DNA of 51,805 nt from Chitinophagaceae bacterium (GTDB lineage: Bacteria; Bacteroidota; Bacteroidia; Chitinophagales; Chitinophagaceae). The position numbers and the translations under genes were made by a program. The stretch lies in NCBI GenBank assembly GCA_947447825.1, contig CANFLL010000020.1, forward strand, positions 1 through 51,805. Reading direction: 5' to 3'. Below the pieces are notes generated by a model. It did not search any database. It was not told where the DNA came from and saw only the letters and a list, made by a program, of their open reading frames with translations. Shown piece after piece: positions 4,744 through 33,693 of the stretch (within the stretch, counting starts at the first letter, position 1; each line of letters opens with the position of its first letter).

Positions 4744-4891
4744 ACCCAGAACCACTAGAGGTTTAACCCGAAATCCTCAGATTTCACCCTAAACCTTCTA
4801 GGGTTCAACCCAAAATTTGAAGATTTTACACAGAACCTTTAGAGGTTTAACCCAGAATCTGAAGATTACATCCCGAACCTCTAGAAGTTCC
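4744..4891. repeat. Array A: seven ~21-bp palindromic units
   Basis: Units begin with ACCC-like tetramers at 4744, 4766, 4786, 4808, 4828, 4850 and 4871 (steps of 20-22 bp). After the leader, most units hold a short inverted repeat. The arms alternate between AACC...GGTT and AATC...GATT, so both arms change together. Reading frames across it contain stops, so it is not coding. It lies between the T9SS/TonB pair and the 1603-aa protein gene. Confidence 0.75.
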
Positions 4892-4920
4892 TATAAATCA
4901 TACGATTAGTCGAAAGTCTT

Positions 4921-5018
4921 ATTAACCATTAACCATTAACCATTAACCACTAACCACTAACTACTAATCACTAATCACTAATCACTAATCACTAATCACT
5001 AATCACTAACCACTAATC
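4921..5018. repeat. Heptamer tandem repeat (14 x 7 bp)
   Basis: Fourteen contiguous 7-bp units: four ATTAACC, then ACTAACC, ACTAACT, six ACTAATC, ACTAACC and ACTAATC. It ends 16 bp before the conserved promoter module of the 5117 gene. Near-perfect short tandem repeats are prone to copy-number change by slippage, so unit number may differ between strains. Effect on expression is not shown. Confidence 0.85.
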
Positions 5019-5033
5019 ATTAGCTTTTCATCA

Positions 5034-5096
5034 CAATTTGGTAACATCAAATTAATCGTTTGATAACCTACCCCGTTGGGTCCATTTATAGTTTTG
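5034..5096 (+). promoter_or_regulatory. Putative promoter module of the 1603-aa protein
   Basis: CAATTTGGTAACA (5034-5046), TTAAT (5052-5056), TTTG (5059-5062) and TAGTTTTG (5089-5096, an exact TAnnTTTG). Every spacing is the same as in the module at 335-397. The -7 element ends 20 bp before the ATG. Identical spacing of four words suggests both genes respond to the same sigma factor or regulator. Confidence 0.5.
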
Positions 5097-5116
5097 CGAC
5101 TTAACTAAATTGTTAA

Positions 5117-8100
5117 ATGATGAAGAAAAATTTTCTCGGCTTCGTGCTTTTGCTAGCAGCAATTAGCGGCAATGCACAGGTGCAGTTCCTTAAATCGGTT
5201 AATTACCGTGGAGCATTTGCACCATCTCCCACAGAAATGTGGACAAAAGGTTGGGCCAATTGGGACCCTCAAAACACAGTGTATGGTACTGCAACTAGAA
5301 CAGTTAAAGGTGCCATCACAAAAGACACTCGTTGGAGTAAAGACACCGTTTACCTTTTGCAAGGTTTGGTGTATGTAATGAACAATGCAACATTGACCAT
5401 TGATGCAGGTACTGTTATCCGTGGTGATTTTAATGTTGCTAACACTTCTTTGGTTATTACCAAAGGTTCTAAAGTATATGCAGTTGGTACAGCTAGTGCG
5501 CCAATTGTATTCACTTCAAACAAGCCTGCTGGTAGCCGTAATCCAGGTGATTGGGGTGGTGTTATTTTGTTAGGTAAAGCACCTATTAATGTTAGTGGTG
5601 GTTCTAATAACATTGAAGGTATTACTGCTACTGATACTACCGCTTATGGTGGTACAGATCCTAACGATAACTCAGGTACTTTAAAGTATGTACGTTGCGA
5701 GTTTGGTGGTTACATTTTCCAACCTAACAAAGAAATCAATGGTTTCACTTTTGGTGGTGTTGGTCGTGGTACAACTATCGATTATGTACAATCTTCTTAT
5801 GCAAATGATGATGCTTTCGAGTGGTTTGGTGGTACAGTAAACTGTTCTCACCTAATCTCTTACAGAGGTATTGATGATGAATTTGATACTGATAACGGCT
5901 TTAGCGGAACAGTTCAGTTTTGTTTAGGTGTTCGTGACCCAAATCTTGGTGATGCTACTTGGAACGTTTCTGGTGGTTCTACCTCAGAAGGTTTCGAATC
6001 TGATAACGATGCTACTGGTTCAACTAACACACCAAAAACTAGTGCAATTTTCAGTAACATTACTTTCATCGGGCCATTGCGTGGTGATGCTTCTTCTACT
6101 AACCAAGCTGCTATCTATCCAGCTTTCAGAAGAAACGCACGTATCCGTCGTAATTCTGAATTAAAGGTTGTTAACTGTGTTATGATGGATTACCCTCGTG
6201 GGTTATTTGTTGATAACAACGGTACTGCTCCAACTTCTGCCAATGCATTGGCTGGTACTATGATTTTTGCTAACAACATCTTAGCTGGTAACGTTGCTGG
6301 TCAAGTTATCGAGCCAAACAATACTTCAGTTTTCCCAACAATTTATTCTTGGTTTGCTTCAAATCATAATGATTCATTGGTTTCTACATCAGGTTTATTA
6401 ACAAGACCTTATGACTGGACAAATCCTGATTTCCGTCCAGCTACTGGTTCTATTGCACTTTCTGGTGCAGATTTTACCAATTCATTGATTGCTCCTTATG
6501 TAATTGTTGAAGCTACTAACAAAAATGTTATTAAAAAAGTAGATTACCGTGGTGCTTTTGCTCCAGCTCCTACAGCAATGTGGACTGCCGGTTGGGCTAA
6601 TTGGGATCCAAACAATACAGTTTATCCTGCTACAACAGTTACCGTTAAAGGTGCTATTACATCAAACACTACTTGGACTAAAAACAACACTTACCTAATT
6701 CAAGGTTTAGTTTATGTAATGAATGGTGCTACTTTAACCATCGAAGCGGGTACTGTTATCCGTGGTGATTATACTGTTGCAAACACATCTTTAGTTATTA
6801 CAAAAGGTTCAAAATTAAATGCAGTTGGTACTGTTAATGCACCAATTGTATTTACTTCTAACAAACCTGTAGGTAACCGTGCTCCAGGCGATTGGGGTGG
6901 TTTGATTTTATTGGGTCAAGCTCCAATTAACGTTGCTGCTGGTTCAAACAACATTGAAGGTATCGTAGCTACTGATACTACTTCTTATGGTGGTACTGAC
7001 CCTGAGGATAACTCTGGTATCATTAAATATGTACGTGTTGAATTTGGTGGTTATATCTTCCAACCAAACAAAGAAATCAACGGCGTAACTTTTGGTGGTG
7101 TTGGTCGTGGTACTACTGTAGATTATGTTCAATCTTCTTTTGCTAATGATGATGCTTTCGAATGGTTTGGTGGTAATGTAAACTGTTCTCACCTTATCTC
7201 TTATAGAGGTGTTGATGATGAATTTGATACTGATAATGGTTTCTCTGGTACTTGTCAATTTTTGTTGGGTGTTCGTGATCCACAACTTGGTGATGCTACT
7301 TGGAACGTTTCTGGTGGTTCTACCTCAGAAGGTTTCGAGTCTGATAATGATGCTACTGGTTCTGCAAATAGCCCATTAACTAGTGCAATATTTACAAACG
7401 TAACTTTTGTTGGTCCATTACGTGGTGATGCTTCTGCAACTAACCAAGCTGCTATCTATCCTGCTTTCAGAAGAAATGCTCGTATCCGTCGTAATTCAAG
7501 ATTAAGAGTACTTAACTGCGTTATGATGGATTACCCACGTGGTTTATTCGTTGATAACAATGGTACAGTTCCTACTTCTGCTGCTGCACTTTCTGGTTCT
7601 ATGCGTTTTAGCAATAACCTTTTAGCTGGTAATGTTAAGGGTCAAGTAATTGAGCCTAATAACACTTCTGTATTCCCTACTATCTATTCTTGGTTTGCTG
7701 ATAACCATAATGATTCATTAGTTTCTACTACTGGTATCTTGGTTAATCCTTACAACTTCACAAGCCCAGATTACCGCCCAGCTACTAGCTCTCCTGCATT
7801 AGTTAACTACAACTTTACAGATACCATCTTTAATGGTGTTTTGAGTGCTAATACTTACGATTTAACTGTTCCATCTGGAGATGCTTCTACAGTTTCTAGT
7901 GATCTTACTTACAATAACGTAACCTTGAGTGGTGGTACTTTAACTATCAATTCTGGTGTTACTTTAACTATTACAGGTAACCTTGCGCTTAATAGTGGTA
8001 CAATCATCAACAACGGTGGTACAATTGTTTATGGATCTGCTTTAACTGTAAACGCTGGTAACAGTGTTAGCTTTAATGGTGTATTCGGAAACGATATCAT

Positions 8101-9928
8101 CAACAACGGAACAATCAACTTAACCGACAATTCAACCTTTAGCGGTAGCATCACAAACAATGGTATCATTACTGGTGCTGGTTCTTATTTAGCTGCTAAG
8201 AAATTGACTTTAACTGGTACTGGTGCAAACTTAGCTGGTAATGGTTCAATTGGTGTTTTAGAAATCAATACTACTGGTACTATTTCTAACACTGGTTCTG
8301 ATTCATTGAAAGTAGTTAACAAATTAATCTTGACTAAAGGTACTTTGGCATCTAACGGTAAATTAACTATCAAATCTTCTTCATTAGATAGCACAGCTGT
8401 TGTTGATGTGGTTACTAATGGTAGTGTTTCTGGTAATGTAGTTGCTGAGCGTTTTATTCCTGCTGGTTTCCGTGCTTATCGCGATTTAACTCCAGGTGTA
8501 AACACTAATGGCGGTACAATTTTCAGCAACTGGCAAGAAGGTGGTAACAAGACTTCTGGTTATGGTGTATTCATTACAGGTGTTAAGGGTACAGCAGGTA
8601 GTTTTGATGCTACTTCTGGTTTAGACTTCACTGGTGGTGGTGGAGCTTCTGCTTATTCATATAGAAATGGTATTTGGTCGGCTTACAGCAGTGCAAACAG
8701 CCAATACACTAAGTCTGGTGCTTTAGCTAATCTTGATTATCACTACGGATACCGTGTATTAGTTAGAGGCGACAGAGGTTTCAATATTGCTGCTACTGGT
8801 TTGTCTCTTTACTTCATGGTAAACAAAACTACTTTGAGAGCTAGTGGTACGTTAGTAACTGGTGATGTAGTGTACAATTCTACTTATTTGAATACTGCTT
8901 TGAATGGTTTCAGCATGATTGGTAACCCTTATTTGGCTCCACTAGATTGGGATGCTGTTGCTAATGACGCTTCTTATGCTTCTTCTAAGTTAACATCTTC
9001 TTACTATTTCATTACTCGTAATGATTCTACTAATACAGATGGACCTAAAGGTGCTTTGAGTTTCTACGCTTCTTATGATCCTAATTTTGGATCAAGTGTT
9101 GAAGGTATTCAAGCTAGATACATTATGCCAGGAAGTGCATTCTTCGTTCAGAATGATGGTAGTGCTGCTACTGGTTCATTCACAATTAAGGAAGCACACA
9201 AAGCTGCTAATAACTCAAGAAAACAATATGGTTTATTCAGCGCAACTGCTTCAAACAACTTATATGTTTCTTTATATAAGAACACCGAAGTAGGATTTGT
9301 AAAAGCTGATGGTATCAAATTGGTAGTTAATAAATCATTGGCTGCTAATCGTGGTGTTAACAAATTTGCTAATGCTTCTGATAACCTTTCTATTGTTGAT
9401 GGTAACAATTCGTTTGCAATTGCTGGTTACAAAAACCTAACTGCTACTGATACAATCAATCTTTCTCTAAGTCAACTTACAGTAGGAACTTCATACAAAT
9501 TGAACCTAAACGCTGCTGGTTTCAATGTTGAAGGTTTAACTGCTTATTTGTTAGATAAAAACTCAAACACTACTACAGAATTAAAATCAGAAGGAACAAA
9601 CGTAACATTTACTGCTTCTAATGCAACTCGTTATGCCATTGTTTTCTCTGCTGCTAAAGCTGCAACTACAACTATTGCTACTTCTATCAGTGCTTTCCCT
9701 AATCCATTAGTGGGTAACACTTTGCACCTTTCTACTAGCAACCTTGCTGCTGGAAAATATAGTGTAGCAGTTTACAATGTATTGGGACAAAAAGTATTTA
9801 CTTCTCAAATCAATGCTGCTTCTAGCATCCAAAATTTGAAAGTAGGTTCTTTGACTGCTGGTAATTACACTGTTGCTGTTAGCAATAACAGTAAAGTAGT
9901 TTACAGTACTGTTTTACAAGTTAAATAA
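5117..9928 (+). CDS. Giant T9SS-sorted surface protein with internal tandem duplication
   Basis: A 1603-residue protein with a signal peptide (residues 1-20, ending GNAQ). Residues ~23-456 and ~470-903 are two copies of one module at an exact 447-residue period (for example YRGAF at 30 and 477). Each contains predicted beta-helix-like stretches (GTVIRGD, NNIEGI, APIVFTSNKP). A Gly/Asn/Thr-rich repeat region (about 915-1070) follows, then a region typical of T9SS cargo (AERFIPAG near 1109, GNPYLAP near 1268) and a C-terminal type A sorting domain (FPNPLVGN near 1527, ending LQVK). Codons are strongly biased to GGT, GCT, ACT and TCT, suggesting high expression. Probably an abundant surface or matrix protein. 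No enzymatic motif was found. Confidence 0.8.
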   Translation: MMKKNFLGFVLLLAAISGNAQVQFLKSVNYRGAFAPSPTEMWTKGWANWDPQNTVYGTATRTVKGAITKDTRWSKDTVYLLQGLVYVMNNATLTIDAGTVIRGDFNVANTSLVITKGSKVYAVGTASAPIVFTSNKPAGSRNPGDWGGVILLGKAPINVSGGSNNIEGITATDTTAYGGTDPNDNSGTLKYVRCEFGGYIFQPNKEINGFTFGGVGRGTTIDYVQSSYANDDAFEWFGGTVNCSHLISYRGIDDEFDTDNGFSGTVQFCLGVRDPNLGDATWNVSGGSTSEGFESDNDATGSTNTPKTSAIFSNITFIGPLRGDASSTNQAAIYPAFRRNARIRRNSELKVVNCVMMDYPRGLFVDNNGTAPTSANALAGTMIFANNILAGNVAGQVIEPNNTSVFPTIYSWFASNHNDSLVSTSGLLTRPYDWTNPDFRPATGSIALSGADFTNSLIAPYVIVEATNKNVIKKVDYRGAFAPAPTAMWTAGWANWDPNNTVYPATTVTVKGAITSNTTWTKNNTYLIQGLVYVMNGATLTIEAGTVIRGDYTVANTSLVITKGSKLNAVGTVNAPIVFTSNKPVGNRAPGDWGGLILLGQAPINVAAGSNNIEGIVATDTTSYGGTDPEDNSGIIKYVRVEFGGYIFQPNKEINGVTFGGVGRGTTVDYVQSSFANDDAFEWFGGNVNCSHLISYRGVDDEFDTDNGFSGTCQFLLGVRDPQLGDATWNVSGGSTSEGFESDNDATGSANSPLTSAIFTNVTFVGPLRGDASATNQAAIYPAFRRNARIRRNSRLRVLNCVMMDYPRGLFVDNNGTVPTSAAALSGSMRFSNNLLAGNVKGQVIEPNNTSVFPTIYSWFADNHNDSLVSTTGILVNPYNFTSPDYRPATSSPALVNYNFTDTIFNGVLSANTYDLTVPSGDASTVSSDLTYNNVTLSGGTLTINSGVTLTITGNLALNSGTIINNGGTIVYGSALTVNAGNSVSFNGVFGNDIINNGTINLTDNSTFSGSITNNGIITGAGSYLAAKKLTLTGTGANLAGNGSIGVLEINTTGTISNTGSDSLKVVNKLILTKGTLASNGKLTIKSSSLDSTAVVDVVTNGSVSGNVVAERFIPAGFRAYRDLTPGVNTNGGTIFSNWQEGGNKTSGYGVFITGVKGTAGSFDATSGLDFTGGGGASAYSYRNGIWSAYSSANSQYTKSGALANLDYHYGYRVLVRGDRGFNIAATGLSLYFMVNKTTLRASGTLVTGDVVYNSTYLNTALNGFSMIGNPYLAPLDWDAVANDASYASSKLTSSYYFITRNDSTNTDGPKGALSFYASYDPNFGSSVEGIQARYIMPGSAFFVQNDGSAATGSFTIKEAHKAANNSRKQYGLFSATASNNLYVSLYKNTEVGFVKADGIKLVVNKSLAANRGVNKFANASDNLSIVDGNNSFAIAGYKNLTATDTINLSLSQLTVGTSYKLNLNAAGFNVEGLTAYLLDKNSNTTTELKSEGTNVTFTASNATRYAIVFSAAKAATTTIATSISAFPNPLVGNTLHLSTSNLAAGKYSVAVYNVLGQKVFTSQINAASSIQNLKVGSLTAGNYTVAVSNNSKVVYSTVLQVK
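5183..6484 (+). repeat. Intragenic duplication, copy 1
   Basis: First copy of the ~434-residue module in the 1603-aa protein. It aligns with copy 2 (6524-7825) at a constant offset of 1341 bp, at least from the YRGAF motif to the central GDATWNVSGG motif. The DNA contains long identical stretches, for example starting at 5945 and 7286. Confidence 0.85.
6524..7825 (+). repeat. Intragenic duplication, copy 2
   Basis: Second copy of the module, offset by 1341 bp (447 codons) from copy 1. Both protein and DNA remain very similar. This implies a fairly recent tandem duplication or ongoing gene conversion, and makes the locus open to deletion by recombination. Confidence 0.85.
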
Positions 9929-9939
9929 TTAATAATTAG

Positions 9940-9973
9940 CCAACAGCAGCAATCAAGTTGCTGTTGGTTCTTT
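9940..9973 (+). terminator. Rho-independent terminator after the 1603-aa gene
   Basis: CCAACAGCA pairs with TGCTGTTGG (9-bp stem, arms at 9940-9948 and 9959-9967), followed by TTCTTTTTT. It begins 12 bp after the stop codon. Confidence 0.75.
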
Positions 9974-10001
9974 TTTACTTAAATTTTAAATTAAATAAAA
10001 G

Positions 10002-10238
10002 ATGAAAAAAACAATTTTAAAATTAACTAAAGTAGCAGCAGCTACTATGTTGATGGTTGCAACTGCAACAATTGCTAATGCTCAAGGTGGTGTAGTTAAT
10101 GGAGGTACTGATTTAGGTGATTCAACTCCTGCTGAAGTTCCATTAGATCCAAACATGACTATCATGTTTGTTGCAACTGCTATCTTGTTTATTACTTACA
10201 AGTTTAAGAAAGGTGAACTTAACATGTTTGCTAAATAA
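10002..10238 (+). CDS. Small exported protein with PID-CTERM-like tail
   Basis: A 78-residue protein. The signal peptide covers residues 1-27 (ends IANAQ). A short Gly-rich mature part (GGVVNGGTDLGDSTP) leads to Pro-Leu-Asp at 47-49, then a hydrophobic helix (about 52-66) and a basic cluster (YKFKK, 66-70). Motif, helix, then basic residues is the arrangement of PID-CTERM/PEP-CTERM-type sorting signals, which exosortase-like enzymes process. The tail after the basic cluster (GELNMFAK) is longer than usual and the motif is PLD rather than PID. It sits between T9SS cargo genes, and its mature start resembles that of the 11566 protein (AQGG..NG.G). Simple membrane anchoring is the alternative. 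Confidence 0.6.
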   Translation: MKKTILKLTKVAAATMLMVATATIANAQGGVVNGGTDLGDSTPAEVPLDPNMTIMFVATAILFITYKFKKGELNMFAK

Positions 10239-10281
10239 AGCACACGTTAGCTTTTAATCACAATAACAAAAGTTTAGTTAT

Positions 10282-10322: not shown

Positions 10323-10360
10323 GTAAATACGAATTGAATTATCTCTTAAATAAATACAAT

Positions 10361-11497
10361 ATGAAATTATTAATTACAAAATTTAAAATGCCCCTATTAA
10401 TGGGTGTATCTATGTTGGTTATTGGTCAAACAGCCGTTAATGCAAAAAACAGTATTATTGGGAAACCAGAGCTTGAATTGCACAAAGAGGTAAAGGTTTT
10501 AACCCAAAAATTATTAAGCCCACAAGGAACTGCCTACAGCTTATATGTTAATTTGATGAAGAACACCGTTTCTGGTTTCGGTCAGGCTAATAATGTTAAG
10601 TTTCTACTTAATTCATCATTGAAAGCAAATGGTGCTGGTACTAATCAGTTGCTAAACACCTCAGATAATATTTATTTTGTTGAAAAAACTAAGTCTTTAT
10701 CTGTTGATGGATATAATACCATTACCGCTGCCGACACCATTACAATTGCAGTAACTGACTTATCTGTAGGTACTAATTATCAGTTACAACTTATTGCAAC
10801 TGCCTTTAAAGTGCCAGGTGTAACTACTATGATTGTTGATAGATATGCTAACACAATTACTGAATTAACAGGCGATACTACAACTCTTGCTTTTACGCCA
10901 ACAGCAGATGTGAATACTTATGGTAAACGTTTTGCCCTTGCTTTCAAAGTGTCGACTTTACCTATTAGGTTAATTTCTGGTTCTGCCGAAAGACTGAACA
11001 ATGGACAAGTAAAAGTTAATTGGAATACACTTGGTGAAGTTGAATTGGCATCTTACACACTCGAAAGCTCTACTAACGCTGTAAATTATACGGCTGTTTC
11101 TACTGTTGATGCTAAAAATGCAGTTTCGGCTAACTATTCTATCACAGATAGTAAAGCAACAAATGCAACCAAGTACTACAGAATTAAAGCAACTGATGTT
11201 GATGGTTCTGCCACTTACAGTAAAGTTTTTGTTGTTACTGGTATTAGTGCTGCAATTAGTGTTTATCCTAACCCAGTAGTGGGCAACACTTTGCACATTT
11301 CAACCAATAATCTTACAGAAGGTAAATATGCGGTTGCTTTGTACAGTTTGCTTGGTAAAAAGGTTTTTGCTACTACAATTGATGGAAAATCTAACGCTTA
11401 CAACTTAAATATTGGTAAGCAAACGGCTGGTCAATACAGTTTAGTTATCAGTTCAGAAGCAAAAATTATTTCTACTACAACCTTACAAGTTAAATAA
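10361..11497 (+). CDS. T9SS-sorted protein related to the C-terminus of the 1603-aa protein
   Basis: A 378-residue exported protein. The frame is open from 10280, but its first 27 codons lie within a terminator hairpin, so ATG 10361 (MKLLITKFK) is chosen. A signal peptide follows (to about residue 28, VNAK). Residues ~45-190 resemble the 1603-aa protein just before its sorting domain (LYVNLMKNT, NVKFLLNSSLKANG, SDNIYFVE, TDLSVGTNYQLQL). A FnIII-like module comes next (about 200-295, VKVNWNTLGEVELASYTLE), then a T9SS type A domain (VYPNPVVGNTLHIS to LQVK). It appears to be a paralogue of the big protein's C-terminal third with an inserted module. Function unknown. Confidence 0.7.
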   Translation: MKLLITKFKMPLLMGVSMLVIGQTAVNAKNSIIGKPELELHKEVKVLTQKLLSPQGTAYSLYVNLMKNTVSGFGQANNVKFLLNSSLKANGAGTNQLLNTSDNIYFVEKTKSLSVDGYNTITAADTITIAVTDLSVGTNYQLQLIATAFKVPGVTTMIVDRYANTITELTGDTTTLAFTPTADVNTYGKRFALAFKVSTLPIRLISGSAERLNNGQVKVNWNTLGEVELASYTLESSTNAVNYTAVSTVDAKNAVSANYSITDSKATNATKYYRIKATDVDGSATYSKVFVVTGISAAISVYPNPVVGNTLHISTNNLTEGKYAVALYSLLGKKVFATTIDGKSNAYNLNIGKQTAGQYSLVISSEAKIISTTTLQVK

Positions 11498-11508
11498 TAT
11501 CCTTTTTT

Positions 11509-11543: not shown

Positions 11544-11565
11544 TCTTCAACTTAAAAATTAATAT

Positions 11566-12450: not shown

Positions 12451-12597
12451 TTATTTTATTATACCCTCCACCACGGCGTTCTTAAGTTCAAGCTTTTTTT
12501 TATGTTGTTCAATGTAAAAATCTGCGTAACCCCTTGCAAATATCTTTCTGGAATCTGCGGTTATTTTTTCTCTTAACTTAATTCTACTTTGACACAT
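12451..12597 (-). CDS. Possible 48-aa ORF or gene remnant
   Basis: ATG at 12597 opens a 48-codon frame with protein-like composition: it starts MCQSRIKLREKI, contains FARGYADFYIEQH and ends VVEGIIK. Downstream on the same strand (12300-12450) other frames also read like protein (for example IEVYKGEIKVTNL and EVKLVPYEK) but are broken by stops. The stretch may be a decayed gene whose first 48 codons remain open. Family not recognised, and chance is not excluded. Confidence 0.25.
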   Translation of the reverse strand: MCQSRIKLREKITADSRKIFARGYADFYIEQHKKKLELKNAVVEGIIK

Positions 12598-12886
12598 TAG
12601 ATTTCATAATGTTCGTGTGTAATATTTTGAGGTTAAGCATTCGTTTTTTTATTAAAATCTATAGGACAACAGGCAAACCTTTGTTTTGTTAGAATGAAAT
12701 ATTGAGGTTGGTTACACTTGCTAAAATTGCTTTGACTGAAAGGAATGAGTAATTTCCTTGATTTCAAATGAAGGAAGTTTCACTCATTTCGAAAATCAAA
12801 TTCTGCTGAGTATAATCTATAAAACCCTTTACTGTCAATGCATACATCATTTAATTTAGCAATTTTAGCATCAAAAAACGTCATTT
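12598..12886. other. Intergenic, nothing recognised
   Basis: AT-rich stretch between the tentative 48-aa ORF and the palindrome array. No supported ORF, hairpin or promoter. A plus-strand frame opening at 12838 runs into the array and is treated as a by-product of its 21-bp period. Confidence 0.45.
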
Positions 12887-13067
12887 ACTCACCTGAGTCA
12901 GCCCACGACTCACCTGAGTCGAGGGCTGACTCAGGTGAGTCGTCGACTCACTCAAGTGAATCTTTGTCTGACTCAAGTGAGTCGTCGACAGACTCAGGTG
13001 AATCTTTTTCTGACTCAGGTGAGTCATGGACTGACTCAGGTGAATTTAAGTGTGATTCAGTTGAATA
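12887..13067. repeat. Array B: nine 21-bp palindromic units (GACTCAGGTGAGTC)
   Basis: Palindromic cores of the form GACTCA-RG-TGAGTC or close variants start at 12887, 12907, 12928, 12949, 12970, 12991, 13012, 13033 and 13054. All steps are 21 bp except the first (20). The last core is degenerate (GATTCAGTTGAAT). One frame is open across it and would encode 7-residue D-S-G-E-S-x-x repeats, as expected for a repeat length divisible by three. It lies between convergent genes (11566 plus, 13271 minus). Confidence 0.85.
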
Positions 13068-13270
13068 AACGGAAGAAAGAGGGCAAAAGAAAGTGCTTCA
13101 GAAAAAATGGTATGGCAAATAATCTTTTTGATGATACCTTCAGGAAAAAAGGATAAGGCAGAATGTTTTTTAGCATAGAGGATTTGAAGATTATAGATGC
13201 TTTATAAAACGAATTAGAGTCTCAACTTTAAATTAAAAACTAAAAATTTAATGTTCACAACGTAGAATTT

Positions 13271-14365
13271 CTAAAAAGCTTCACCTAAAATAAAATACAG
13301 GCCACTATTATTGTCTTGTCCAAAGCCATAATCAAGGCGTAAATTCAGCTTTTCGCTTTTGCTAATGGCAAATCGTAGGCCTGCCCCATAAGCATATCGT
13401 AGATCACCAATTGTAAAGTCGGTAAATGTGTTGCCAACATTGCCTGTGCTGCCAAAAACAGCTAACCCCCATCGATTATAAACTGGTAGCCTATACTCTC
13501 CTTGAAACACCAAAAGGTTTTTGTCACGGTACCGTCCACTGTAATAGCCTCTCATACTATTACTCCCACCAAGGCCAGAAAGGCTACGAATAGGTATGTC
13601 GCTGCCTATATTGCCCGTAAAATATCCTTGCAAAGCCAGTACTTGTTGTTTGTAGATAGTGAAATATTTTCTATAATCCAGAACCAAATTACTGTAATTG
13701 TAATCCGAGCCTGTGGTTTTGCCGAAATAAGAATAATGTAGTTGAGCAAAAGTTCCCTTATTTGGTGAGAAAGCTTCTTTACGATCATCGAACGAAAAGC
13801 TTAGTCCTACTCCAGACACAAAATAGGGGGTTCTCCCTGCCACATTTTCCTGATCGAAGAGTCCTTTAGGCTCATAATTTACTTTAAAAACCTTTTGCAT
13901 TTCATACGTTAATCCAATGAAACAATGATTAGCCAAATGTTTCATTAAATGGAGATACGTATAATATTGGCTAAACGTGTAGGACTCCTGTGCCGAATCG
14001 GGCGTGCCAGCACCGATCCCCCAAAATTTATCTGGATAATTGCTATATGAAAGTTGTTCATTGAGGATATAATGCTCTTTTTTGAAATATTGTGTGCCAT
14101 TAATGCCCGCAATGAATTGTTTTTTTAATGAATAAAGGGCTATTCCTTGCATGTTTGACGTGCGGGTAGTTGTGTCAGATTTATAAAGATGAAAGGTGGC
14201 AGAAGTGGCAACGCCAAACGACCAATTAGTTTCTATTGAACGAGTAATTACCGGAAAAACAAGCAGTTGTTTAAGGTGCAAAGTATCCTTTATGGGGCTT
14301 TGAGCAACGCAATTGCCTGCAAACAATACAAATATGAAAGCTGAAATCCAAAGTCTTAAATTCAT
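13271..14365 (-). CDS. BamA/TamA-family outer membrane barrel protein
   Basis: A 364-residue protein with a signal peptide (1-21, ends CVAQ) and a C-terminal barrel of the bacterial surface antigen (D15) family. The signature is MRGYY at 271-275, matching the conserved (V/I)RG(F/Y) loop motif of Omp85 barrels, and the chain ends in the terminal Phe expected for a barrel insertion signal. No POTRA repeats precede the barrel, so it is shorter than BamA or TamA. Such stand-alone barrels are frequent in Bacteroidota, and their cargo is mostly unknown. It is monocistronic with a 242-bp spacer upstream. Confidence 0.78.
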   Translation of the reverse strand: MNLRLWISAFIFVLFAGNCVAQSPIKDTLHLKQLLVFPVITRSIETNWSFGVATSATFHLYKSDTTTRTSNMQGIALYSLKKQFIAGINGTQYFKKEHYILNEQLSYSNYPDKFWGIGAGTPDSAQESYTFSQYYTYLHLMKHLANHCFIGLTYEMQKVFKVNYEPKGLFDQENVAGRTPYFVSGVGLSFSFDDRKEAFSPNKGTFAQLHYSYFGKTTGSDYNYSNLVLDYRKYFTIYKQQVLALQGYFTGNIGSDIPIRSLSGLGGSNSMRGYYSGRYRDKNLLVFQGEYRLPVYNRWGLAVFGSTGNVGNTFTDFTIGDLRYAYGAGLRFAISKSEKLNLRLDYGFGQDNNSGLYFILGEAF

Positions 14366-23206: not shown

Positions 23207-23439
23207 TGTTGTTTGTTTTATTGATTACCCCTATCCCCTAAAGGGAGAAAAGGAGAGTTAAAAAATAAGTGTATTAAAAAAATTTACACATTGGTAGATA
23301 GTAACATAGAAAAAATGTATTAAACGTTTCACTTTAAGATCACATAGTGGGTATGATAATTAATCTACAATTTCTATGTTTTCTTTTCTAAACTAATTCA
23401 AAAAACTATGTGACTGGTGTGCCTATGTTGTAAAGTAAC

Positions 23440-25736: not shown

Positions 25737-26058
25737 AGTAAAATTAGGGTAGTTGCCTTATAATGGCGGTAAATGCAAGGAAATGGGAGGTTAATAGCAT
25801 CATGCAACAATTTACTACAACGAAGATATTTTTATAGCTATCCTGTCTAACAAGTACAAATAGCTACCCAATTTAAAAAAACTTGTCTTTTTATTCATCA
25901 TTAAATGAATACATTAATTGGTTTTTAAACAAATAAATAGTCCCTTAATTTCTTCATTATTCACATCCATATCTCACAACACAAACAGCCAATCGTATTA
26001 TTTGCTAGCCAAAAAAAATAACTACCTGAGCTTACTTTTATACTCGATGGCGGTTTCA
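25737..26058. other. Intergenic, nothing recognised
   Basis: AT-rich part of the divergent spacer between the TonB receptor promoter and array C. No ORF, hairpin or repeat that I can support. Confidence 0.45.
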
Positions 26059-26316
26059 AAAAAACCACAGGCTCGCTACGTAATCCGATAGTGTGTTCCT
26101 ACAACTGTTTTTACTCCATTTCTGATTGAATAGGGGGTTCAGACAACACCATTTGCCCACCATCAAATCTGATACCCACCATCTACAACTGCATTTGCCT
26201 AGTATCCAATCCGATACCGCTCCTGGCAAACCCACAGGCTCGGTATCCAATCTGATACCGAGTAAATACAGTTGTAGGAACACGCTATCGGATTACGTAG
26301 CGATCCTGTGGGTTTT
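26059..26316. repeat. Array C: 50-bp inverted repeat enclosing ~42-bp units
   Basis: The outer arms, about 26064-26114 and 26260-26314, are near-perfect reverse complements over about 50 bp with few mismatches. Both contain CGCTACGTAATCCGATAG-like and GTTCCTACAACTGT-like words. Between them, core words such as GTATCCAATCYGATACC recur. Unit starts near 26075, 26117, 26160, 26202, 26243 and 26284 give a step of 41-42 bp, twice the 21-bp step of the other arrays. The word CCACAGGCTCG occurs at both ~26065 and ~26232. The outer shape resembles a MITE, but no transposase or clear target duplication is visible. Confidence 0.75.
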
Positions 26317-26584
26317 GAGGAACACCATGGTGAATTTGATGGTAACTAAATCTATTAAAAATCAATTACTTAGTGCTAATTAAGTTTAAAAATAATCTTC
26401 CCTTCAATTATTTAGAAGTAGAATCCTGTTCTTCGTTGCTGTAATTTTGCAGGAATCTGATTGGAAATGAATACTTTTTTAGTGTAAGAGATCCATATTA
26501 ATAAAATGAACAGAAAAAATCATCACTTCCTTACATAATTATTCATCATTAATTGACAACACAGATTGCAATGTCATTACTTAC
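26317..26584. other. Intergenic, nothing recognised
   Basis: AT-rich spacer between array C and the promoter of the second signalling cassette. No supported feature. Confidence 0.45.
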
Positions 26585-27430: not shown

Positions 27431-27437
27431 TAATAAC

Positions 27438-28217
27438 ATGGGAAATGTAACTACAATGCCTCAAAAAGAACGCGTTTTTGTAATTGAAGATAACCATAAA
27501 TATGTGGAGTTGATTACAAGAGCCCTGATTAGTGATTACAATGTGTCATGCACCGATTCTGCCGAAAAAGGCTTGGAAGTGTGCAAAGCATTTTTGCCAA
27601 ACATTATTCTATTAGATATTAACCTGACAGGTAATCAGAGTGGGATTGATCTGCTTAAAAGCATTAAAGGGGATGAAACACTTGCGCATTTGCCTGTTTT
27701 AATTATGTCGGGTATTTCTTCCTCCCAAATAATTTCGGACAGTTTAGAATATGGAGCTAATGACTACTTAGTTAAGCCTTTTGATATTAAGCACTTGACA
27801 TACAAAATGAAAAACCTGTTGGCTATATCTGAATATGCTAAACGAAAAAAAGTTGATGTAACCACTATTAGTGATGCGCAACAAATTAAGCCAAAACATA
27901 ACTTGATTAAGCAAATTGAGGATTTAGATGATGAAGCTATATTGAAAAGTAAAATGTCTAACCTTGTCGATTTATCAAAAAGATTAGGTATTAGTCAGAG
28001 TACCATTAATAGAGCAATTCAAAAGAATTTAGGGATGTCGCCCAATAACTTTTTAGTGAAACGAAGACTAGAAAAAGCAAAACTTTTGGTAATTAGTAGC
28101 CAGTGGAAACAAGTAGGTGAAATTGCCCACGAAATGGGTTTTGCAACGAGTTCCTATTTTTGTAATTGCTTTAAAAAACATTTTGGATGCTCACCTTCTG
28201 AAATGAGGGCTAGATAA
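27438..28217 (+). CDS. Response regulator, receiver plus AraC-type DNA-binding domain
   Basis: 259 residues. The receiver (about 11-130) has Glu17-Asp18, phospho-acceptor Asp60 (IILLDIN), Ser/Gly switch region (LIMSG) and Lys in LVKPF. The AraC HTH (about 165-258) has helices VDLSKRLGISQSTINRAIQK and VGEIAHEMGFATSSYFCNCF. It is a paralogue of the 18507 regulator with the same architecture. It is preceded by the REC-DHp gene (7-bp gap) and followed by the PAS kinase at 28437. Being the closest DNA-binding regulator to the beta-glucan locus, it is a candidate activator of that locus. That link is inference. Confidence 0.9.
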   Translation: MGNVTTMPQKERVFVIEDNHKYVELITRALISDYNVSCTDSAEKGLEVCKAFLPNIILLDINLTGNQSGIDLLKSIKGDETLAHLPVLIMSGISSSQIISDSLEYGANDYLVKPFDIKHLTYKMKNLLAISEYAKRKKVDVTTISDAQQIKPKHNLIKQIEDLDDEAILKSKMSNLVDLSKRLGISQSTINRAIQKNLGMSPNNFLVKRRLEKAKLLVISSQWKQVGEIAHEMGFATSSYFCNCFKKHFGCSPSEMRAR

Positions 28218-28436
28218 TTTTTTACTTTTTTATTGCCATTGATTTGTTGTTTGCACCTAGATGTTGCTTCTTATTTTCCGACTTGAAATAAACATCTCAT
28301 AACGTTTAGCTTTCTAAAAGATGATCCATTACTGAAAACTTAATGTAACTTGGTATTGATGTGCTGGTGAAAGATGATGCTTAAGTGTTTTATTTTTAAT
28401 TTAGTGAACAGTGTTTCTAAACTAAAAAAATGACTA

Positions 28437-30347
28437 ATGAACTACGAAAAGGCTTACAATGAATTGCTTGACAAATATAATTGCCTACAAACTGAGCTAG
28501 TTAGGATTGATGAAGAGCGAGATATTTATGAACAAATATTGAGAAGCACAAAACGAACTGTTGCATTAATTAATTTGAATAGAGAGATAATTTGGATTAA
28601 CAAAACTGCTGTTAACAGATTTGGATATAGCCTAGAAGAAGTTAAGGGCAAACGAATAGCGGACTTAATTTATGGCCCGGATACTGATTTTAGTATGGTT
28701 CCTGCGGCATTTGAAAATGCGCTGAAAGGAATTTCAACTCATTTTGAACATTTGTTATATACTAAGTCGGGCGATAAATTTTGGAGCAAGACAGAAATTC
28801 GTCCATATTGTAATTCCCATGGTGAAATTGATAAACTGATCATTTATGGAATGGACATTAGTCATGAAAAGGCACTGCAAGAAGAGATTAAAGAGGCTGA
28901 AATTAGGTATAAAGAAATTCAGGATAACAGTCCAGATGTGATATATACAATTGATTTATCGGGCAATTTGTTAAGCGTAAACAATACTTGGACAACACTA
29001 TTAGGTTATTCCAAAACTAAATCTATCGGTAAAAAAATAAATGAATTTTTTTATTACGAAGATGTTCACAAGATAATTCAGGAAAGGCAAAGATTAAGCA
29101 CAGGAGATTCAACGTCATTTAACGTTGATGTAAGATTTAAAACAAAAGATGGGAATTTATTGTGGGTAAACACAACAGGGATTCCTATTTATTCTGAAAA
29201 AAAAGAGGTAATTGGTTTTTCGGCAGTATCAAGAGACATAAGTAGAGAGAAAAGAGAAAAGCAATTAAAGCTTTTATTAACTGCTCAGGTGAGTGATTTG
29301 CTTTGCCTACATGATGCAGAAACAAGGTACACGTTTGTTTCACCATCTATTAAAGAAATTGCGGGATACGAACCAGCGGAACTGATAGGGAAGCCATCCT
29401 TTATGTTCTATCACCCAGAAGACCTACCTAAAGTAATTGAATATAGAAATAGAAATAATCTTGGAAAATTGTATCCGGGAGAGAGTGTTACCTTGAGGTA
29501 TTTAAAAAAAGATGGTAGTTACACTTGGTTAGAGCTAACTGGAAAAACAATTTATGATGAAAAGCGCAACATAACAGGGGCTGTAACCTGTTGCAAAGTT
29601 GCTAACTTAAAAAAAGAAGAAGAAAACAGAATTCAGGCCGCTCTAGAAGAAGAAAAAAAGCTTAATGAACTAAAATCTAGCTTTCTACGATTTGTAGCGC
29701 ATGAGTTTAAGGCACCAATTTCTGTAATTAGGGCTTTGGTAGAGCTAATGCAAATGAGCATTGAGGACAAGGATGTGAATTTGGATCAAATGGAACAAGA
29801 TCTTAATGGGATTGAAGTTGAAGTAAAAAGCTTGATTACTTTAATGGAAGATGTGTTAGTGCTAGAAGAACTAGAGAGTGGCACTATTAAACTAAAGATG
29901 GGCACTTATTCTTTAATAGACATGTTGAAGAACGTTAATGAACGGCTGCCTTTTGATTGGCGACAAAAGGCTACAATTGAAGTAGAAGGTAAAGAAATGG
30001 GAATTAAGGGGGATAAGAAATATTTGGAGCTGATACTTAAAAATCTACTTTCAAACGCTTTCAAATATTCAGAAGGTAAACCTTACCCAGTTGTAAAGGT
30101 TGTTTTTAGTAAGAAAGAAGTAAAAGTAACTGTAAAAGATTTTGGAATAGGTATTCCGGTCGAGTATCAGGAAAAGTTGTTTACTAACTTTTATAGGGCA
30201 GGAAATGTAGGTGGTGTTGATGGAACTGGTTTAGGATTAAGCATCGTTAAAAAGTTTGTAGAACTTCATCATGGAAGCATATCATACACCACCGAGGTAA
30301 ATGTAGGTACAGAAATGATTGTAGTATTACCAGTAAGGGGTAGGTAA
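28437..30347 (+). CDS. Soluble PAS-domain sensor histidine kinase
   Basis: 636 residues, no membrane segments. An N-terminal coiled coil is followed by three PAS domains (about 30-140, 150-270, 280-395; IIWINKTAVNRFGY, GNLLSVNNTWTTLLGY, SPSIKEIAGYEPAELIG). HisKA has His422 in FVAHEFKAPIS. HATPase has N box NLLSNAFKYS (near 535), G1 DFGIGIP, F box LFTNFYR and G2 GTGLGLSIVKK. It is a close paralogue of the kinase at 20240 and shares the third PAS motif SPSIKEIAGYEP. It lies downstream of the two receiver genes and upstream of a CheY-like gene, so a multi-component phosphorelay is likely. Confidence 0.92.
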   Translation: MNYEKAYNELLDKYNCLQTELVRIDEERDIYEQILRSTKRTVALINLNREIIWINKTAVNRFGYSLEEVKGKRIADLIYGPDTDFSMVPAAFENALKGISTHFEHLLYTKSGDKFWSKTEIRPYCNSHGEIDKLIIYGMDISHEKALQEEIKEAEIRYKEIQDNSPDVIYTIDLSGNLLSVNNTWTTLLGYSKTKSIGKKINEFFYYEDVHKIIQERQRLSTGDSTSFNVDVRFKTKDGNLLWVNTTGIPIYSEKKEVIGFSAVSRDISREKREKQLKLLLTAQVSDLLCLHDAETRYTFVSPSIKEIAGYEPAELIGKPSFMFYHPEDLPKVIEYRNRNNLGKLYPGESVTLRYLKKDGSYTWLELTGKTIYDEKRNITGAVTCCKVANLKKEEENRIQAALEEEKKLNELKSSFLRFVAHEFKAPISVIRALVELMQMSIEDKDVNLDQMEQDLNGIEVEVKSLITLMEDVLVLEELESGTIKLKMGTYSLIDMLKNVNERLPFDWRQKATIEVEGKEMGIKGDKKYLELILKNLLSNAFKYSEGKPYPVVKVVFSKKEVKVTVKDFGIGIPVEYQEKLFTNFYRAGNVGGVDGTGLGLSIVKKFVELHHGSISYTTEVNVGTEMIVVLPVRGR

Positions 30348-30498
30348 TAATAGGGGGTAATTGGAGCTTGATGTTCAAATCAGTACAACTAAAAAGAGAA
30401 CGCAGCTTGTTTAATATATCAGTGAGAAACGCAGAAGTTTGTTCTTGATGAGGAAATGATTAGTTAATTATAATAATAAAAAACATTAAATAAAATTG

Positions 30499-30900
30499 AT
30501 GGAATTAGAAGTAATAATAGTTGATGATAATGACATGACACGTCTTTTGCACCGGGAAATTGTATCGATAGCTGGATTGGGTGTAAAAGTGCCAGCATTT
30601 GCAAACGGAAAAGATGGTTTGTTTTATTTATATCAACGACCTAATCCAAAAAGTCCAGTATTAGTTTTGTTAGACATTAACATGCCAATTATGAACGGAT
30701 GGGACTTTTTAGATGGGTTACCCAAAATGGAAGGAAATGAATTTGTTTTGGTGACAGTAGTGTCTTCTTCCGTAGACGGTGAAGACAGGATTAAAGCATT
30801 TACTTATCCAAATGTTATTGAATATTTAGAGAAGCCAATAAAGCCATCAATGTTGACTGATTTAAAGAAGCTTGTAGATCAAAAATTAGTGACAATGTAA
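30499..30900 (+). CDS. CheY-like single-domain response regulator
   Basis: 133 residues, a receiver domain only. ATG 30499 (MELEVIIVDDND) is preferred over an adjacent upstream TTG. Key residues are Asp9-Asp10, phospho-acceptor Asp59 (VLLDINMPIMNGWDF), Ser/Thr (VVSSS) and Lys-Pro in EKPIKPS. There is no output domain, so it would act by protein contact or as a phosphate sink or shuttle. It is 151 bp after the kinase. No counterpart is seen in the first cassette. Confidence 0.88.
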   Translation: MELEVIIVDDNDMTRLLHREIVSIAGLGVKVPAFANGKDGLFYLYQRPNPKSPVLVLLDINMPIMNGWDFLDGLPKMEGNEFVLVTVVSSSVDGEDRIKAFTYPNVIEYLEKPIKPSMLTDLKKLVDQKLVTM

Positions 30901-31409
30901 TTTTTGTGTAATGCTTGATAAAATGGGTTAATCATTTTTGTGGCACTGAGTATGAATTGATAATTGAATAAAAGCTTTATAGTCCTTTTTTGTTTTTTAT
31001 CATTTTATGCTTTTTGCTGTGAAGAGTCTGGTTAAAATATATTGATCAATTTTAAGTTCAGTGGAGTGTCTTCTCAGCTTATTACTTGTTGCTTATTGCT
31101 TTCAACTTCTTACTAGATTTCAGTGATGTTTCTTTTTGTTTTGTAGCTGAAATTTATTCTTGATGTAGTGCGTCTAGTCATTATTGAAGTACGAATGATG
31201 TAGTGCTTGTAGGTATTAAAAAAGGCAACTTTACGCTCGATGTAGTATTGAAGTGTGTGGTTTGTAGTGGAGCAATTTGTATCCTATTACTTTTACAATT
31301 CACAGTTTCTTGTTTCCCATATTTAAAAACGACTGACGATTATTTGCCTCTAGCTGTTTTAATCATGGTAACCATGAACCATTAATTATTAATTTAAAAA
31401 CAGAAAAAA
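30901..31409. promoter_or_regulatory. Leader region of the T9SS glucan-binding gene with repeated words
   Basis: A 509-bp spacer. It carries TGATGTAGTGC twice (31161-31171, 31196-31206), TATTGAAGT twice (31182-31190, 31246-31254) and a third GATGTAGT (31240-31247). The 13-mer GTAGTATTGAAGT (31242-31254) recurs upstream of susC at 34054. A small hydrophobic GTG-start frame at 31203-31385 overlaps these words and is not called. No clear TAnnTTTG was found. Confidence 0.45.
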
Positions 31410-33242
31410 ATGAAAAAAAGTTACGCTCTCTTTGCCATCTTATCCTTGTTTATTTGCAAGGTGTATGCACAACCCGCCACACCCGCAGCTCTCCCAACAG
31501 CCAATAAGGCAAATGTTATTTCATTATGGGGTAATTCTTACACTAATGTTACAGGTACTAATTGGTTTCCGGGTTGGGGGCAAAGCACGCAAGTTGCTTA
31601 CTCAAACATTGGCGGCGACACTACAATTAATTATTCAAGTCTTAACTATGAAGGCGTTTCTTTTGCAAGTCCTATAAACATATCCAATATGGATTCTATC
31701 CATTTTGATATATGGACTTCTAATTGTACATCTTTAGATATCAGACTTATCAATTCTGCTTCTGTTTCTGGAACCGGCAATCCTATTCAACCAAACGTTA
31801 CTGTGGCACTCAAAACGAATTCATGGAACAGTGTTTCTATTGCAGTGTCTCAATTCACCGGTCTTAAATTAGGATTGCTAGATCAAATGTCCTTTACAGG
31901 ATTAACGCCAGCTGCTGGTGGAAACATTTATCTTCAAAACATTTACTTCTCTTCACACGTCAATTTGCCAACTATTTCTGGATTCTCTATTCCTTCAAGT
32001 TTGTTAGTTGGTGCAGCACCTTTTACCATTACTCCGCCTACTAGTAACAGCAATGGGGTCTTCACATATTCTAGTAGTGATACCACAGTTGCTACAATTA
32101 GTGGTAATACAGTAACTATTGTTGGTGCAGGAACAACCGTTATAACTGCAAACCAAGCAGCGGCGGGTAGCTACTCTAGTGGCTCTGCATCTGCTACATT
32201 AGTTGTTTCTTTTGCACCTCCTACCGTTGCAGCTACAGCACCAAGCAAGGATGCTGCAAATGTTATTTCATTGTGGGGTAATCATTATACCAATGTTTCT
32301 GGTGTTAATTTCAGACCAGATTGGGGTCAAGCAACACAGCTTTCTATTTTAAATGTAGGAGGCGACACTACCTTAGAATATACTGCTTTAAGTTATGAAG
32401 GCGTTCAGTTTGCTAGTGCTTTAAATGTGTCTAAGGCTGGTTCATTCCATCTTGATATATGGTCTCCTAATGCTACATCTATTGCAGTAAATCTTATTAA
32501 TTCTACATTGGTAACTGGCGGTGCAGCAGTGCAAGTAGCAGACACAATTTCATTAACAAAGTCTGGTTGGAATAGTGTAGAAATTCCTTTGAGTGCATTT
32601 AATGTTGTTGATTTAACTAAAGTAGATCAGTTAATGTTCACAGGAGTTACACCTGCTTTGGGTGGAGTTATTTATTTACAAAATGTTTATTTCTGGTCTA
32701 CAAGTGTTTTGCCTGTTAAACTTGATGGATTGACTGCAAGCTTAAATGGTAATAGTGCGCTTGTTTCTTGGAATTCTGCACTTGAATCTAGTTTACAAGG
32801 ATACAACGTTCAGCATAGTATTGATGGCGTAAATTGGACATCGGTTAATTATGTTGCAGCTAAAGGCAGTAACGCTTCTTACAGTTTTATTGACAATGCT
32901 CCAGTAAGTGGTGTAAACTTCTATCGTTTAAGCATTGTAGATGCAGTAGGTAAGCTAACTTATTCCACAACAGTTTCTGTTAATTATGTTAAAGCAATCG
33001 CAGTTTCATTCTACCCAAATCCAGTTCAGCGTGTTTTGAATGTAAAGATTGCATCAATTAAAAATTCATCTGCTAGCCTATCCCTAGTAAGTGCAGCTGG
33101 GCAAGTTGTTAAAACGATACAATTAAATAAAGGATCAAATAATTTTTCTGTTGATGTAGCAGGCCTTGCAAAAGGAACTTATCTGCTAGTATTAAAAGAC
33201 GGAACTATTACTAGCACTTCAAAGGTTGCAATAGTAAAATAA
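31410..33242 (+). CDS. T9SS-sorted protein with two beta-glucan-binding-like modules
   Basis: 610 residues. A signal peptide (1-20, ends VYAQ) is followed by module 1 (about 33-180, starting ANVISLWGNSYTNV and ending IYLQNIYF), a Big_2-like Ig domain (about 186-265, YSSSDTTVATISGNTVTIVG), module 2 (about 281-435, ANVISLWGNHYTNV), a FnIII-like module (about 437-530) and a T9SS type A sorting domain (FYPNPVQRVLNV to VAIVK). Modules of this VISLWG/YTNV...GWGQ type accompany T9SS-exported laminarinases in Bacteroidota, so a carbohydrate-binding role is likely. No catalytic domain is present. It precedes the SusCD locus on the same strand and shares upstream words with susC. It probably captures beta-glucan at the cell surface. 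Confidence 0.75.
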   Translation: MKKSYALFAILSLFICKVYAQPATPAALPTANKANVISLWGNSYTNVTGTNWFPGWGQSTQVAYSNIGGDTTINYSSLNYEGVSFASPINISNMDSIHFDIWTSNCTSLDIRLINSASVSGTGNPIQPNVTVALKTNSWNSVSIAVSQFTGLKLGLLDQMSFTGLTPAAGGNIYLQNIYFSSHVNLPTISGFSIPSSLLVGAAPFTITPPTSNSNGVFTYSSSDTTVATISGNTVTIVGAGTTVITANQAAAGSYSSGSASATLVVSFAPPTVAATAPSKDAANVISLWGNHYTNVSGVNFRPDWGQATQLSILNVGGDTTLEYTALSYEGVQFASALNVSKAGSFHLDIWSPNATSIAVNLINSTLVTGGAAVQVADTISLTKSGWNSVEIPLSAFNVVDLTKVDQLMFTGVTPALGGVIYLQNVYFWSTSVLPVKLDGLTASLNGNSALVSWNSALESSLQGYNVQHSIDGVNWTSVNYVAAKGSNASYSFIDNAPVSGVNFYRLSIVDAVGKLTYSTTVSVNYVKAIAVSFYPNPVQRVLNVKIASIKNSSASLSLVSAAGQVVKTIQLNKGSNNFSVDVAGLAKGTYLLVLKDGTITSTSKVAIVK

Positions 33243-33275
33243 GGAACTACACCCCCCCCTACGCTTAAATGCAAA

Positions 33276-33307
33276 AGAGGTTGCCAATTCGGCAGCCTCT
33301 TTTTTTG
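33276..33307 (+). terminator. Terminator after the glucan-binding T9SS gene
   Basis: AGAGGTTGCC (33276-33285) pairs with GGCAGCCTCT (33291-33300), one G-U pair, then a run of T. An 8-C tract sits just before it at 33252-33259. Confidence 0.85.
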
Positions 33308-33412
33308 TGTATATGTTTAGGTAAAGACCACGACTTTTAATTTTTGTACCATAAGCTCTAGACTAATAAGCCCTTGCTTTACGTTAGGTAACCCCGTGCT
33401 TTAGGTAGGCAT

Positions 33413-33693
33413 ACGTAAAATTTTACCCCAGTAACCTAAAGTTTTACGTCTGCCTACCTAAAATTTTACGTCCCCATACGTAAAATTTTACCCTAAGAAC
33501 CCAAAGTTTTACGTCTGCCTACCTAAAGCACGGGGTGGTCTGACGTAAAGCACGGATTGTTTAACGTAAACCACGGGGCTACCTAACGTAAAACTCGGGT
33601 AGTCTGACGTAAAGCAAGAGGATACCTAACGTAAAGCATGGGTAACTTAACGTAAAGAACGGGGTTGCCTAACGTAAAGTAAGGTTACTACTC
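33413..33693. repeat. Array D: thirteen ~21.5-bp units built on ACGTAAA
   Basis: Unit starts (ACGTAAA or ACCTAAA/ACCCAAA variants) lie at 33413, 33434, 33456, 33478, 33499, 33521, 33543, 33564, 33586, 33607, 33629, 33650 and 33672: steps of 21 or 22 only. The first five units are palindromic around AAATTTT/AAAGTTTT (CGTAAAATTTTACC-like). Later units replace the second arm with GCACGGGG-like sequence. Further partial units extend left to about 33375. It is not coding (TAA in the core). It lies between the T9SS glucan-binding gene and susC. Confidence 0.85.

What the first reader, a model, noticed from the sequence alone, without database searches (positions are those of the whole stretch)
4744..33693. 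Four unrelated intergenic arrays share one architecture: self-complementary units at a ~21-bp step
Arrays at 4744-4891, 12887-13067, 26059-26316 and 33413-33693 have no common sequence. Each is built of partly palindromic units repeated at 20-22 bp, or 41-42 bp in the third. All lie between genes, each array has its own motif, and the units vary while keeping arms complementary. Unrelated sequences with the same period point to a common generating process or binding geometry (about two helical turns) rather than descent from one repeat. There are no unique spacers, so it is not CRISPR, and no ORF is conserved across arrays. Inference: a template-independent amplification mechanism, phased protein-binding platforms, or a structured-RNA/DNA element not tied to sequence.
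Basis: partly seen in the sequence, partly recalled or inferred. Interest (0 to 1): 0.75.

Follow-up and report, generated by a model that had tools for sequence, protein, structure and literature searches.

The report
Two-turn palindrome arrays between genes
A group of related bacteria carries many short repeat arrays between its genes, mostly with one spacing of 21 bases whatever the repeated letters are, and in the best-studied array the symmetric core of each repeat is protected from mutation as a protein landing site would be.

Summary
The arrays are real and part of something larger. In 852 kb of this genome TRF finds 61 arrays with a 21-type period (3 in true genes and 2 heptamer-based included), 28 in 389 kb of a sister species, none in 312 kb from 11 genomes of other genera. 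Noncoding self-identity peaks at lags 21, 42 and 63; lags 19, 20 and 23 give zero. The window arrays share no sequence, but each has relatives elsewhere in the genome. Array 2 is the inside of a MITE-like element listed at 40 places (a lower bound). Its length is 5 mod 21 in 27 of 27 copies; among 14 copies its dyad core TCAnnTGA changed in 5 of 756 positions, its linker in 139 of 1008, its flanks at 12-16% per site. Its arms do not covary and it has no codon signal. This fits dimer-binding sites two helical turns apart better than hairpins or coding repeats. Dyad excess with conserved paired columns also appears across arrays, strongly in a minority. No binding protein was found. Nearest known case: MITE-borne minisatellites of Porphyromonas gingivalis. 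Eight open-access literature searches showed no genus-wide fixed period.

The parts
4737..4889 (.). Array 1: 42-bp period made of two alternating 14-bp dyads (AACCTCTAGAGGTT type and AAATCTGAAGATTT type) at a 21-bp step; one other array of the family was found in this genome (C9:18634-18789; the search scored 40 of 134 candidates)
12578..13097 (+). MITE-like element copy with left terminal repeat; the last ~160 bp and right terminal repeat seen in other copies were not found here by BLAST
12887..13059 (+). Array 2: eight 21-bp units plus 5 bp, core ACTCAnnTGARTC; centres CC, CC, then GG or AG
13098..13170 (+). About 1.7 degenerate copies of the 42-bp unit that forms a 235-bp array at the orthologous site of sister species G004 (C19:28664-28898)
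   Evidence: compared by eye
26053..26323 (.). Array 3: foldback with 80-nt arms and three 41/42-bp repeats; part of a dispersed element (about 25948-26322), one more copy listed in this genome and two in G004
33363..33684 (.). Array 4: motif ACGTAAA in both orientations at 21/22-bp steps, inverted left part, palindromic middle; related arrays at four other loci in this genome plus one weak 32-bp match

Best explanation
The arrays are intergenic minisatellites, some carried inside non-autonomous mobile elements, whose units act as dyad-symmetric binding sites for dimeric DNA-binding proteins. Sites are set two helical turns apart (21 bp, with 42 and 63 as multiples; 20.5-22 tolerated), so that all dimers sit on one face of the DNA and can bind cooperatively. 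Each family has its own core sequence, hence presumably its own protein or a variant of one protein family; the geometry, not the letters, is shared. Shown: the fixed period in this genus, the dyad excess, and the protected core and fixed register of array 2. Inferred: that a protein binds, that it is dimeric, that binding is cooperative, and what binding achieves (silencing or insulating the element, or helping it move).
For: Period. Families. Array 2: length 5 mod 21 in 27 of 27 copies with both anchors. Aligned to copy L157 the arrays show 554 substitutions in 4414 sites and six internal indels, all of 21 bp (end gaps not counted); left flanks that passed a divergence filter show 968 in 7145 and 26 indels, none of 21 bp, so about 15 non-21 indels would be expected in the arrays. 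In 14 nine-unit copies the core TCA..TGA has 5 changes in 756, the linker 139 in 1008; changes seen in one copy only are 0.093 per core site, 0.861 per linker site, 0.61 and 0.72 per flank site, 0.52 in left-flank TCA/TGA trinucleotides. Copies lacking a terminal repeat are no less constrained (3 of 282 against 8 of 1008). The arm pair beside the core is C-G in 111, C-A in 80, T-G in 17, T-A in 6 of 215 units: no compensation. Across arrays: paired columns are less variable than the rest, mean difference -0.072 against -0.012 +/- 0.013 with columns permuted, 0 of 300 as low; true of 13 of 13 strongly palindromic arrays and 29 of 38 in all. In the 852-kb sample 17 of 18 matches to the full motif lie in copies of the element.
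Against: No binding protein is known and no binding was measured. The core constraint is demonstrated for one family. About two thirds of the 38 arrays tested are not strongly palindromic, and 65 of 85 fail the test. The strict register does not generalise in TRF statistics: 32 of 50 and 9 of 16 period-21 rows have no indels, rows of other periods 34 of 63 and 20 of 30. Mirror symmetry of column variability is mixed (median rank 0.12 in the 13 best arrays). No solo sites were seen, so no regulon-like use. The right-end test allows five errors and called the window copy intact where BLAST did not, so its split is rough.
Confidence: 0.5

Rival explanations
1. Period-locked amplification without function: a replication or recombination process of this genus duplicates DNA in steps of two helical turns, and the arrays are neutral by-products spread partly by mobile elements.
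For: The same period in unrelated sequences; arrays in gaps of every gene orientation, convergent 8 of 56, divergent 22 of 93, tandem 40 of 229; different or no arrays beside orthologous genes in relatives.
Against: Does not predict that the dyad core is protected after dispersal while the linker is not, nor the link of dyad pairing and column conservation across arrays.
Confidence: 0.25
2. Hairpin, cruciform or RNA structure is what is selected: units pair within and between each other, as stem-loops of a transcript or an extruded DNA element.
Against: Only 6 of 52 arrays covary; in array 2 the outer arm pair is broken in 98 of 215 units without compensation; no Rfam match in the window.
Confidence: 0.13
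3. Protein-coding heptad repeats: 21 bp is seven codons, and array 2 has an open frame (M..DSGES..DSVE).
For: The frame runs through in 20 of 27 copies; some true genes of the genome have 21-bp repeats.
Against: Variability by codon position is flat (0.241, 0.192, 0.219) and the dN/dS-like ratio in that frame is 1.12; 7 of 27 copies stop early.
Confidence: 0.04
4. Intrinsically curved DNA: A-tracts phased with the helix.
For: The 21-bp period itself.
Against: A-tract signal at 10.5 bp is no stronger than with columns permuted (mean z 0.02, 63 arrays).
Confidence: 0.02

Closest known systems
BrickBuilt and MITE464/PgRS of Porphyromonas gingivalis (PMC4596501; abstract, section 7 part 1 and section 8 read)
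   Same: Bacteroidota; MITE with terminal inverted repeats carrying a tandem minisatellite (23 nt; 41 nt in PgRS), 19 intergenic copies of BrickBuilt in one strain, long predicted stem-loops, no transposase remnant.
   Different: Two families in one species with periods 23 and 41, not one period shared by many families; other terminal repeats; the parts read report no core conservation or helical phasing. Most arrays here have no detectable terminal repeats.
REP/BIME elements moved by RAYT transposases (PMC3733652, passages read)
   Same: Small intergenic palindromes, some in tandem; Y1 transposase matches occur in this genome.
   Different: The REPs of that paper fall into two tagged super-families; here many unrelated cores at one spacing. 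Y1 matches are found in 12 of 13 genomes of the genus and 20 of 26 outside it.
Plasmid iterons and transposon-end arrays such as the TnsB sites of Tn7 (recalled, no call)
   Same: Tandem protein sites about two turns apart, bound on one face.
   Different: No replication gene among the 13 window proteins scanned; units here are often dyads and the arrays are dispersed over the chromosome.
Cyanobacterial STRR heptamers (recalled)
   Same: Intergenic short tandem repeats with a 7-bp step; this genome also has 7-bp arrays.
   Different: 21-bp units with dyad cores in many families.

Membership tests
MITE (element around array 2) | Terminal inverted repeats | tested here: met
   Perfect 22-bp inverted ends in copy L157; both ends placed by BLAST in 19 of 33 loci examined, one of them (L212) without a recognisable left repeat; terminal word 47 hits against 3 for the reversed control
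MITE (element around array 2) | Short, no transposase gene, many copies | tested here: met
   584-731 bp in those 19 loci; 40 places listed, 40 of 56 candidates scored; the only frame within the element seen in four copies is that of the array, without codon signal
MITE (element around array 2) | Target-site duplication | tested here: inconclusive
   Same 4 bp outside both ends in 13 of 19 by eye; only five (TTAG three times, GTAA, CTAA) are informative, since TTAA may belong to the inverted repeat; L162 fits the repeat instead
MITE (element around array 2) | Autonomous parent with the same ends | tested here: inconclusive
   None seen: three DDE_Tnp_1 hits in the genome, none on a contig with a terminal-word hit; other transposase families were not searched for this purpose
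BrickBuilt/PgRS | Same terminal repeat (GAGACC..) | tested here: not met
   Ends differ (against Table 2 of PMC4596501)
REP/BIME | GTAG or CGTC tag on the palindrome | not tested
   No tag search was run
REP/BIME | Associated RAYT (Y1 transposase) | tested here: inconclusive
   Y1 matches in 32 of 39 genomes, inside and outside the genus; RAYTs not separated from other Y1 proteins
CRISPR | Identical repeats with unique spacers | tested here: not met
   Units adjoin and linkers recur from unit to unit; cas genes were not searched
Iteron array | Rep initiator gene beside the array | tested here: inconclusive
   None among 13 window proteins scanned; not all genes were scanned
Dimer-binding site array | A protein that binds the core | not testable with these tools
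   No binding data

The most novel reading that the evidence does not exclude
One bacterial genus maintains hundreds of chromosomal platforms, in dozens of unrelated sequence families, that share only a geometry: dyad sites every two helical turns, each family kept by its own dimeric DNA-binding protein, with mobile elements as carriers.
Probability: 0.25. Interest if true: 0.85.

Novelty: new variant of a known kind. Interest (0 to 1): 0.62.

Why it matters
Tandem repeats between bacterial genes are usually put down to slippage, with no preferred length (general knowledge). Here a genus keeps one length across unrelated sequences, and in one dispersed family the symmetric core is protected while its surroundings drift. 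That makes it possible to ask directly whether helical geometry can be selected, or built in by a mechanism, independently of sequence, and gives a ready bait to find the protein.

Tried and rejected
Coding: spoken against for array 2 by flat codon-position variability and a dN/dS-like ratio of 1.12. Of 16 arrays that lie in ORFs, I judged four to be in true genes (L112:12395, L118:17911, L024:15556, L064:6874) and 12 to be read-through of stop-free repeats, by eye. Curved DNA: no signal. Rfam RNAs and tRNAs in the window: none. Terminators or promoters: no clear orientation preference. RAYT link: Y1 matches in 32 of 39 genomes, inside and outside the genus. Every array inside a MITE: not supported; flanking inverted repeats at or above the 95% null quantile in 9 of 86, some of them array flanks or other dispersed repeats. 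Shared flanks among arrays: few pairs. Autonomous parent of the element: not found. Solo copies of the core: one hit, in coding DNA. Literature: eight searches listed no report of a genus-wide 21-bp period; the library holds open-access papers only.

Rows dropped and limits: four arrays with a 7- or 14-bp period and the four true coding repeats were left out of most tests (the 61 and 28 still include them). Arrays with fewer than five units, or fewer than six units or little variation, were left out. In one search one array had no fold energy, so the printed mean is nan and I use only the count. In one search the axis was chosen on the observed data; chooses it from column frequencies. The 91 entries include one array twice, heptamer arrays and the coding repeats. 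Searches scored only 40 candidates per genome, so copy counts are lower bounds. Part of the G008 sample (about 2.9 kb) is self-identical at every lag and unusable.

Full report
What was checked. The window is contig 20 of a 4.65-Mb, 187-contig genome. The 13 proteins scanned include TonB receptors, a SusC-like protein, T9SS-sorted proteins and sensor kinases, so the phylum is Bacteroidota. The records found for one protein (Omp85-like, 13271-14365) are Hydrotalea flava (63% identity), a MAG titled only Bacteroidota (63%) and a MAG titled Chitinophagaceae (51%); the family is probably Chitinophagaceae (inference). Twelve same-genus genomes are held, the closest by that protein being G004 at 80%.

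The four arrays are real. Tandem Repeats Finder and the repeat finder place them at 4737-4889, 12887-13059, 26053-26323 and 33363-33684. They show no mutual similarity. No ORF of 100 aa or more covers arrays 1, 2 and 4; array 3 is crossed by an 85-codon TTG frame. The window has no Rfam match. Array 3 is more a foldback with three 41/42-bp repeats than a plain array, and the right half of array 4 is not palindromic.

The period is a property of the genome. In 146 kb of noncoding DNA from 852 kb of this genome, windows of high self-identity number 0 at lags 19, 20 and 23, 2386 at 21, 55 at 22, 130 at 41, 3286 at 42, 213 at 43 and 1542 at 63; one-, three- and five-turn lags (10-11, 31-32, 52-53) give zero apart from 36 at lag 32. 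First-order resamplings give 1,0,0,0,0. The sister species G004 shows the same pattern. Heptamer lags (14, 28, 35, 49, 56) are a second, weaker set. TRF finds 61 arrays of the 21 type in 852 kb of G000 and 28 in 389 kb of G004, 7.2 per 100 kb in both (these include four in true genes and four heptamer-based). If the sample is fair that means some 330 per genome (extrapolation). Eleven other same-genus genomes were sampled thinly, 17-80 kb each: eight had at least one such array; G005, G008 and G009 had none. Eleven genomes of other genera, 312 kb, had none where about 22 would be expected at the same rate; three titled records, 51 kb, whose genus was not checked, had none either.

Families. 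Among 91 entries, 39 fall into 14 sequence-linked groups and 52 stand alone in this sample (one array is entered twice, and heptamer and coding repeats are included). Array 1 has one relative found, array 3 one in this genome and two in G004, array 4 four other loci and a weak match. Array 2 has 40 listed places in this genome, a lower bound, and none in G004, G003 or G002. So arrays do descend from one another within families, while families are unrelated and the geometry is common.

Array 2 lies in a mobile element. Copies share a left part, the array and a right part, bounded by inverted repeats, 22 bp and perfect in copy L157. Of 33 loci examined, 19 had both ends placed, with lengths of 584-731 bp; 13 of the 19 have the same four bases outside both ends, five of them informative (TTAG, GTAA, CTAA), which suggests a 4-bp duplication of the form NTAR (read by eye). 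That would fit IS5-like elements (recalled). The window copy lacks the right part by BLAST. The same site in G004 carries a different, 42-bp array, of which the window keeps about 1.7 worn copies next to the truncated element (by eye).

What is constrained in array 2. All 27 copies with both array anchors have a length of 5 mod 21, with 3 to 10 units. Aligned with copy L157, the arrays show 554 substitutions in 4414 sites and six internal indels, each of 21 bp, end gaps not counted; the left flanks show 968 in 7145 and 26 indels, none of 21 bp. In the 14 copies with nine units, positions TCA..TGA changed in 5 of 756 cases, the two centre bases in 18%, the linker in 139 of 1008. Changes seen in a single copy, probably the more recent ones, number 0.093 per core site, 0.861 per linker site, 0.61 and 0.72 per left and right flank site; flank TCA/TGA trinucleotides are not protected to that degree (0.52 left, 0.71 right). 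Copies with a missing end are as constrained as the others, though numbers are small and the split is rough (3 of 282 against 8 of 1008). The arm pair next to the core is C-G in 111 units, C-A in 80, T-G in 17, T-A in 6 and A-G in 1 of 215: pairing is not kept. The open frame through the array runs on in 20 of 27 copies but has no codon signature. A fixed dyad core, free linker and fixed spacing are what a row of sites for a dimeric protein should look like.

Interpretation. I put the binding-platform reading at 0.5. The main rival is a period-locked duplication process with no function, which explains the shared period equally well but not the protected core. A mixture is possible: mechanism sets the period, selection keeps some cores. 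What the platform does is unknown; no binding protein, transposase partner or solo sites were found.

Known relatives. MITEs with minisatellites are known in this phylum: BrickBuilt (23-nt units, 19 copies) and PgRS (41-nt units) in Porphyromonas gingivalis (PMC4596501; abstract, section 7 part 1 and section 8 read). Array 2 is the same kind of thing with other ends and other units. The fixed period over unrelated families and the protected dyad core go beyond what I read there; eight literature searches listed no such report, within an open-access library only.

Noticed in passing
window 4923-5016: Heptamer array (TAACCAC/TAATCAC) beside array 1; 49 further heptamer-type matches listed in the genome, 40 of 134 candidates scored. 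AATCACT resembles the heptad bound by the plasmid omega repressor (recalled, probably coincidence).
   Followed up: no
window 23278-23435: Intergenic stretch of about 155 bp that matches dozens of listed places, mostly at 69-88%, in the six same-genus genomes searched: a dispersed repeat or conserved RNA of another class.
   Followed up: no
L028:11190-11338: Another dispersed repeat, 15 or more places listed in G004; inverted copies of a similar-looking repeat flank the array at L106:7440-7875 (likeness judged by eye).
   Followed up: no
L023:11006-11517: A second array (11117-11289) inside a 38-bp terminal inverted repeat, so perhaps a second MITE-like carrier.
   Followed up: no
L108:3068-3404: Array that changes motif half way (TTTTACTGTACAGTAAAA to a CTAAAAGTT type) without leaving the 21-bp register.
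   Followed up: partly
L112:11938-12507 and L118:17470-18081: Two similar genes with a 21-bp heptad repeat, AQMARTD type.
   Followed up: no
L028 8258-8527 region: In the relatives where both neighbours were found, the genes on the two sides of this array match different contigs; may reflect rearrangement or assembly breaks.
   Followed up: partly
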